A DNA stretch of 64,000 nucleotides. It comes from Tindallia sp. MSAO_Bac2. GTDB lineage: Bacteria; Bacillota; Clostridia; Peptostreptococcales; Tindalliaceae. Shown in pieces: positions 63,212-64,000 of this stretch. Every line of letters begins with the position of its first letter. Positions within the stretch are counted from its first letter, which is position 1. Position numbers and translations under genes: made by a program. The notes below the pieces were generated by a model. The model was given only the letters and a program-made list of their open reading frames with translations. It was not told the DNA's origin and did no database searches. The stretch lies in contig QYZZ01000019.1 in the NCBI GenBank assembly GCA_003838145.1, positions 1 to 64,000 of the forward strand. The letters run 5' to 3'.

Positions 63212-63327
63212 GAATTTTCATTTGAAATACAAGGGGAGTTGACATTGTGAAAACTCTGCCATATAATAAAAACTGGATATGTGGTTGCAATTTGGAAAAC
63301 AAGCTGATACCGTTCAAGTAAATGAAT

Positions 63328-63506
63328 CATAAATAGAGGAGCAGTCATAGGGTAACCGGGACATACTAAGGAGGCACACCTCTGATGGTTCCGGCGAAGG
63401 CTTTGACTGCCGAAAGAGTTTTACTGGTGTGCGGTGAACTCTTGACAGTTCAGGACAGGCCTGGGTTGTTGTCATGCCAATGTTTGAGCATGGAGAGCTA
63501 TTTATG
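63328..63506 (+). ncRNA. Lysine riboswitch (L-box) aptamer
   Basis: P1 CATAAATAG (63328-63336)/CTATTTATG (63498-63506); L-box-like ATAGAGGAGC and TGGAGAGCTAT ends; GACTGCCGAAAG core; P2 base GCAGTCA/TGACTGC; P3 AAGAGTT/AACTCTT; P4 CAGG/CCTG; P5 CATGC/GCATG; L2-L3 kissing GCACACC (63374-63380)/GGTGTGC (63426-63432). Confidence 0.82.
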
Positions 63507-63539
63507 TAATGAGGCATCATTACGTAAATAGCTTTTTTT
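63496..63539 (+). terminator. Riboswitch-linked intrinsic terminator AGCTATTTATGTAATGA ggca TCATTACGTAAATAGCT + T7
   Basis: 17-bp stem with one G:U, U-tract; its 5' arm contains the 3' strand of riboswitch P1. Confidence 0.9.
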
Positions 63540-63611
63540 CATACCCATAACCATTGATGCCCGAATCCTGAATACGTTATAAAATCAGCGAAGAAGAAAG
63601 GTGGTTATTTC

Positions 63612-64000
63612 ATGAACAGTGTACCTAAGCTTAATCTTGAAAGATCCATGAAAATGTTTGAAGAGGCTAAGAATGTGTCGCCGGGCGGGCTGCTTGGTAT
63701 CCGTCGTCCTTACAACTTTGTTGAAGGAGAGTATCCAATTTTTATTGAAAGAGGATATGACGGTCATATCGTCGATGTGGATGGCAACGATTATATCGAT
63801 ATGCTTTGCGGCTACGGTCCCATCATTCTCGGTTATCGCGAACCGGAAATCAATCAGGCTGTTATCGAACAAATGGAAAAAGGCTTCTGTTTTTCTTTGG
63901 TGCAGGAGATTCAAAACACTTTGGCTAATCGCCTCGTAAAGCTGATTCCCTCAGCAGAAATGGTAGTACTTGCAAAGACTGGATCTGATGTTACCACCAT
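63612..64000 (+). CDS. Class III PLP aminotransferase (glutamate-1-semialdehyde aminotransferase-like), partial, runs off right edge
   Basis: NVSPGGLLGIRRPYNFVEGEYPIFIERGYDGHIVDVDGNDYIDMLCGYGPIILGYREPEINQAV...AEMVVLAKTGSDVTT. Confidence 0.82.
   Translation, partial: MNSVPKLNLERSMKMFEEAKNVSPGGLLGIRRPYNFVEGEYPIFIERGYDGHIVDVDGNDYIDMLCGYGPIILGYREPEINQAVIEQMEKGFCFSLVQEIQNTLANRLVKLIPSAEMVVLAKTGSDVTT

What the first reader, a model, noticed from the sequence alone, without database searches (positions are those of the whole stretch)
63328..63540. Probable lysine riboswitch with ON-type (lysine-induced) geometry ahead of a class III aminotransferase
Seen directly: a five-helix fold with P1 CATAAATAG/CTATTTATG, a 7-bp loop-loop kiss GCACACC/GGTGTGC and a GCCGAAAG core, all matching L-box architecture. 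The 3' strand of P1 (63498-63506) lies inside the 5' arm of the only visible terminator (63496-63533), with no separate antiterminator. In the classic B. subtilis lysC L-box, P1 competes with an antiterminator, so lysine turns expression OFF. Here P1 would compete with the terminator itself, so lysine should turn expression ON. That would suit a lysine catabolic or export operon led by the aminotransferase.
Basis: partly seen in the sequence, partly recalled or inferred. Interest (0 to 1): 0.82.

Follow-up and report, generated by a model that had tools for sequence, protein, structure and literature searches.

The report
Lysine-induced riboswitch before kat
A lysine-sensing RNA switch sits in front of a gene for burning lysine as food and is built to turn that gene on when lysine is plentiful, the reverse of the textbook lysine switch; lysine-ON switches of this kind were already predicted in bacteria, but not, as far as I could find, on this enzyme.

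Summary
Confirmed. Window 63326-63508 is a full-length lysine riboswitch (RF00168, 71.2 bits, gathering score 30). The 3' strand of P1 lies inside the 5' arm of the only terminator, so P1 itself is the antiterminator and ligand binding should give read-through (ON). The 'aminotransferase' is most probably Kat, 3-aminobutyryl-CoA transaminase, an enzyme tested in vitro by others (Perret 2011). Kat replaces Kal in a variant lysine fermentation. The genome also carries kamA, kamD, kamE, kdd and kce, with no detectable kal. Eight genomes (two families) share the riboswitch-kat pair; in one, the switch heads a ten-gene kat-kce-atoDA-kdd-kamABCDE operon. Of 86 lysine riboswitches in relatives, 13 have this geometry, preceding kat (8), kal (4) or a thiolase (1). 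Their aptamers form one group even with P1 left out (support 99/86). ON lysine riboswitches before kal/kce were already predicted (Rodionov 2003, cited in Barrick 2007; Mukherjee 2017), so this is a new member of a known kind. New are the kat target and the hint that one ON-switch lineage was kept while the enzyme changed. Lysine binding and switching are inferred, not shown.

The parts
63239..63267 (+). sigma-70 promoter, TTGACA (63239-63244), 17-nt spacer, TATAAT (63262-63267)
   Evidence: 12 of 12 consensus match; conserved upstream of kat in five genomes
63326..63508 (+). lysine riboswitch aptamer, RF00168
   Evidence: cmscan 71.2 bits, full length; covariation over 13 relatives
63328..63336 (+). 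P1 5' strand CATAAATAG (acts as the antiterminator strand)
   Evidence: exact complement of 63498-63506; pairing probability 0.92-0.98 before the terminator is complete
63374..63380 (+). P2 loop strand of the loop-loop kiss, GCACACC
   Evidence: complementarity kept with changed sequence in G014 (AAGAAC/GTTCTT) and mostly in G008
63409..63416 (+). conserved core GCCGAAAG
   Evidence: GCCGAA present in 85 of 86 lysine switches of the sample
63426..63432 (+). P3 loop strand of the kiss, GGTGTGC
63496..63533 (+). intrinsic terminator stem-loop; its 5' arm contains the P1 3' strand 63498-63506
   Evidence: 17 perfect pairs (21 counting the flanks), about -25 kcal/mol; U-tract 63533-63539; covariation in relatives
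63597..63604 (+). ribosome-binding site AAAGGTGG of kat, about 60 nt downstream of the terminator and outside it
63612..64000 (+). kat, 3-aminobutyryl-CoA transaminase (HemL-like class III aminotransferase); 418 aa, stop at contig position 64868, beyond the window
   Evidence: 60% identical to a Cloacimonadota Kat homologue; gene neighbourhoods; PMC3149608

Best explanation
This is a transcriptional ON lysine riboswitch for kat. Transcription starts from the consensus promoter just downstream of 63267 (inferred). The aptamer folds with P1 formed before the terminator's 3' arm is made (folding model). Without lysine, the completed terminator pulls the P1 3' strand away from P1 and transcription stops at the U-tract 63533-63539. 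With lysine bound, P1 is held, the terminator cannot close and RNA polymerase reads on into kat. Kat turns 3-aminobutyryl-CoA plus 2-oxoglutarate into acetoacetyl-CoA plus glutamate, replacing Kal in lysine fermentation. High lysine would thus switch on an enzyme needed only when lysine is being fermented. Shown here: aptamer family, geometry, conservation, gene contexts, presence of kamA/kamD/kamE/kdd/kce and no detected kal. Inferred: lysine binding, sign and size of the switch, enzyme activity of this protein.
For: Aptamer. P1 and terminator share one strand, with no other strong partner; the leftover hairpin without the P1 strand is only -3.4 kcal/mol and ends about 10 nt before the U-tract. 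Design kept in 8 kat loci of two families and 4 kal loci. Contrast inside the same genome: the second switch C64:39834-40015 has its terminator 67 nt downstream, and its counterpart in a sister genome precedes asd. Gene logic: 13 of 13 such switches precede lysine-catabolic genes or a thiolase; kat-kce-atoD-atoA-kdd-kamA-kamB-kamC-kamD-kamE behind the switch in G008. Kat identity: 60% to a Cloacimonadota homologue beside a thiolase, the arrangement reported for the tested enzyme CLOAM0809/0810; kal missing from all eight kat-switch genomes; KamA, KamD, KamE, Kdd and Kce above NCBIfam cut-offs in this genome; canonical HemL encoded elsewhere (610.8 bits).
Against: At equilibrium the full leader strongly favours the terminator (11-15 kcal/mol over P1), so lysine must act kinetically during transcription; not modelled. 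The bit score is lower than for the biosynthetic switch of the same genome, with a shortened P2 internal loop. No binding or transcription data exist for this RNA. Kat function rests on homology and context; Perret 2011 warns that a 60% homologue in NaphS2 lies in a genome without lysine-fermentation genes. In G005 P1 is short and the U-tract weak; in G018 the terminator is weaker.
Confidence: 0.88

Rival explanations
1. OFF switch as in B. subtilis lysC: lysine binding promotes termination and kat is repressed by lysine.
For: Most lysine riboswitches in the order are not of this layout: 73 of 86 do not have the overlap.
Against: There is one terminator and P1 blocks it; no separate antiterminator was found. 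The regulated gene is catabolic. The overlap is conserved over two families with compensatory changes.
Confidence: 0.04
2. The aptamer has changed ligand, for example to beta-lysine or another intermediate or analogue, and senses that instead of L-lysine.
For: Lower score and shortened P2 internal loop than the biosynthetic switches; the ON aptamers form their own branch.
Against: Core strings AGAGG..GC, GCCGAA, UGUCA and GAGnGCUA match the consensus; beta-lysine lies one step from lysine, so lysine is the natural inducer.
Confidence: 0.06
3. The aminotransferase is not Kat but another beta-aminoacyl-CoA or HemL-like transaminase, so the lysine link is indirect.
For: No NCBIfam model reaches its cut-off. 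Homologues in Desulfobacterales and relatives have no lysine genes in the flanks seen.
Against: Orthologues at 74-84% identity are in one operon with other lysine-fermentation genes; kal is absent where kat has the switch; HemL is encoded separately.
Confidence: 0.08
4. Relic riboswitch: only the terminator or leader works, with no lysine response.
For: No functional data; terminator much more stable than P1.
Against: Compensatory changes in the aptamer helices across the 13 ON switches and partly preserved loop-loop complementarity.
Confidence: 0.03

Closest known systems
Lysine-ON riboswitches before kal/kce in Clostridium sticklandii, Fusobacterium nucleatum and Thermoanaerobacter (PMC5584792 section 13; Rodionov 2003 as cited in PMC2258182)
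   Same: Same Rfam family, same predicted ON logic (binding buries part of the terminator stem), same lysine-fermentation pathway.
   Different: Here the target is kat, the transaminase that replaces kal. I found no mention of kat as a riboswitch target in the papers held (Rodionov 2003 itself could not be read).
B. subtilis lysC L-box (OFF, transcriptional)
   Same: Aptamer architecture and transcription attenuation.
   Different: There (from general knowledge) P1 competes with a separate antiterminator; here P1 is the antiterminator, and the logic is reversed.
Kat, 3-aminobutyryl-CoA aminotransferase, Candidatus Cloacimonas acidaminovorans CLOAM0809 (PMC3149608)
   Same: HemL-like class III aminotransferase at the kal position of lysine fermentation; the window protein is 60% identical to a Cloacimonadota homologue beside a thiolase gene.
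   Different: Activity of the window protein not tested; the 2011 paper does not mention riboswitches.
ON-type glycine and adenine riboswitches (PMC2258182)
   Same: Ligand binding traps a terminator strand.
   Different: Different ligand and aptamer.

Membership tests
Lysine riboswitch (RF00168) | covariance-model score above gathering threshold over the full model | tested here: met
   71.2 against 30 bits, model 1-182
Lysine riboswitch (RF00168) | P1-P5 with conserved junction and P2-P3 loop kiss | tested here: met
   all helices present, 7-bp kiss, covariation
Lysine riboswitch (RF00168) | binds L-lysine | not testable with these tools
   needs in-line probing or calorimetry
ON-type (catabolic) lysine riboswitch | P1 3' strand lies within the terminator 5' arm, no separate antiterminator | tested here: met
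ON-type (catabolic) lysine riboswitch | controls a lysine-catabolic gene | tested here: met
   kat context in relatives; pathway genes present in this genome
ON-type (catabolic) lysine riboswitch | lysine raises read-through | not testable with these tools
   needs in vitro transcription
Kat (3-aminobutyryl-CoA transaminase) | class III aminotransferase family (PF00202) close to HemL | tested here: met
Kat (3-aminobutyryl-CoA transaminase) | orthologue of the tested enzymes | tested here: inconclusive
   60% to a Cloacimonadota homologue and 59-61% to Bacteroidota homologues in lysine clusters; the tested sequences themselves were not compared
Kat (3-aminobutyryl-CoA transaminase) | lysine-fermentation genes present and kal absent | tested here: met
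Kat (3-aminobutyryl-CoA transaminase) | activity on 3-aminobutyryl-CoA | not testable with these tools
   enzyme assay needed
HemL (glutamate-1-semialdehyde aminomutase) | TIGR00713 above cut-off | tested here: not met
   274 against 527 bits; true HemL at C64:27204 scores 610.8

The most novel reading that the evidence does not exclude
Probability: 0.5. Interest if true: 0.5.

Novelty: new member of a known kind. Interest (0 to 1): 0.4.

Why it matters
It ties an often misannotated 'glutamate-1-semialdehyde aminomutase' or 'class III aminotransferase' to lysine fermentation by its own regulatory RNA, in a lineage where the activity was not known to me. It gives eight natural kat-type and four kal-type lysine-ON switches that can be tested against OFF switches in the same genomes, and a small natural case of a riboswitch staying in place while the enzyme it controls is replaced. 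Natural lysine-ON switches are also useful sensor parts.

Tried and rejected
First idea that the aminotransferase replaces Kdd (diaminohexanoate transaminase): rejected, because kdd is present in all 14 genomes of the sample with the aminotransferase, and Perret 2011 gives the 3-aminobutyryl-CoA reaction. Idea that it is HemL: rejected. Apparent in-frame TAG in kce of G000 and G001: only the normal stop codon. G039 lysC switch (L180) flagged as overlapping by my terminator rule: on inspection it has an ordinary downstream terminator after CCTATGG and is counted OFF, though its aptamer lies near the ON group in the quick tree; G047 asd (L011) hit was a weak -6.3 kcal/mol hairpin. G005 was missed by the U-run rule and added by eye. 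I first read a base change at P4 of the kat aptamers as a wobble; it is an ordinary compensatory G-C to A-U change. The outgroup named HemL in the kat tree was wrongly picked (it is HemA), so that rooting is not used. Shared-string test of the P1 5' strand and terminator 3' arm: only modest (p 0.003).

Full report
Observation. The covariance model RF00168 matches window 63326-63508 on the + strand over its full length (71.2 bits, gathering 30, E 1.3e-16) and is the only Rfam family found in the window. A perfect promoter (12 of 12) lies at 63239-63267 and is conserved in the five genomes aligned. The kat start codon is at 63612 with its ribosome-binding site at 63597-63604, outside the terminator.

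Geometry. Folding the growing transcript, P1 is in the minimum-energy structure until about 63524, is lost from 63528, and the terminator gains 3.6 kcal/mol at 63531 and 11-15 once complete. Before the terminator's 3' arm is made, 63498-63506 pairs only with 63328-63336 (probability 0.92-0.98); in the full leader the terminator has probability 0.997. What is left of the terminator without the P1 strand is a -3.4 kcal/mol hairpin about 10 nt from the U-tract. P1 is therefore the antiterminator and the only consistent logic is ON, acting kinetically. The step 'lysine stabilises P1' is inferred from the known family, not shown.

Relatives. Of 60 relatives searched, 51 have RF00168. G001, G002, G003 and G005 have the same leader before the same gene; G008, G099 and G124 (a second family) have it too. 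I classified 86 switches by whether the best downstream terminator's 5' arm covers the P1 3' strand (G005 added by eye, two false flags removed after inspection). Thirteen have the ON layout: kat in 8 genomes, kal in G014, G018, G025 and G059, a thiolase in a second switch of G059. The other 73 lie before other genes where one could be read from the first open frame, many recognisable as asd, lysC, dapA, lysA or transporters; they were not all annotated. Across the 13 ON switches the aptamer and terminator show compensatory changes, including concerted change of all three competing strands in G014 (CGTAAATAG / CTATTTACG / ACGTAAATAG). With the P1 strands left out, the 13 ON aptamers form one group against the 73 others (support 99/86, rough bootstrap, several long branches); in the quick tree kat switches are nested among kal switches (weak support).

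The gene. The 418-aa product is a class III aminotransferase nearest to HemL but far below every NCBIfam cut-off; canonical HemL is encoded at C64:27204 (610.8 bits). Homologues from many phyla lie in lysine-fermentation clusters: kce in 31, kdd in 23 and kamD in 10 of 89 loci, plus kamE, kal and atoDA. Perret et al. 2011 (PMC3149608) showed that such a HemL-like protein from Candidatus Cloacimonas is a 3-aminobutyryl-CoA:2-oxoglutarate transaminase, Kat, standing in for Kal. Cloacimonadota homologues here sit next to a thiolase as in that paper, and one is 60% identical to the window protein. The window's genome carries kamA, kamD, kamE and kdd (C124) and kce (C31, 448 against 382 bits), and kal was not found in any of the eight kat-switch genomes, while G004, G014, G018, G025 and G059 have kal. 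In G008 the switch is followed by kat-kce-atoD-atoA-kdd-kamA-kamB-kamC-kamD-kamE on one strand. In G000 kat is followed by a terminator-like site at contig 64906-64937, while the kam genes lie on another contig downstream of a sigma-54 type regulator gene.

Literature. Positive regulation of kal/kce by lysine riboswitches has been predicted (PMC5584792 section 13), and ON lysine switches that bury a terminator strand are mentioned in PMC2258182 citing Rodionov 2003; the 2003 paper was not held. Searches found no paper joining kat with a riboswitch. So the kind is known; the target and the replacement pattern appear new.

Verdict. Interest is moderate: strong comparative support, known kind.

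Noticed in passing
L036 4562-6907, L037 8863-11241, L038 3830-6166: In G002, G003 and G005 a GGDEF-EAL protein (cyclic-di-GMP phosphodiesterase-like, for L036) directly follows kat; it is absent in G000 and G001, so it may share the lysine switch in some relatives.
   Followed up: partly
contig C6 75306-78760 (L033 13306-16760), beyond the window: A second class III aminotransferase, a BKACE enzyme (283 bits to Kce, below its cut-off of 382) and a TRAP-TAXI binding protein form a likely operon for another beta-keto or beta-amino acid.
   Followed up: no
L101, L111, L112, L115, L117-L119, L123, L125-L128, L130: Kat-like genes of Desulfobacterales, Syntrophales and relatives lie after a conserved ~440-aa partner (cluster c5), without lysine genes in the flanks: probably a different acyl-CoA transaminase.
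   Followed up: no
L056, L057, L058, L062, L075: Kat and Kal occur side by side (kdd-kat-kal-kce where the flank is complete) in Dethiobacter- and Syntrophomonadaceae-type genomes, so the two are not always alternatives.
   Followed up: partly
L190 / L046 (G059 C126): A second ON-layout lysine switch precedes a thiolase followed by acyl-CoA dehydrogenase-like and electron-transfer-flavoprotein-like genes (read from the translations), apparently putting the butyrate branch under lysine control too.
   Followed up: partly
L185 10444-11865 (G000 C124): A PrdR-like sigma-54 dependent regulator gene precedes kdd and the kam genes of the window's genome, which have no lysine riboswitch: apparently two control systems for one pathway.
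   Followed up: no
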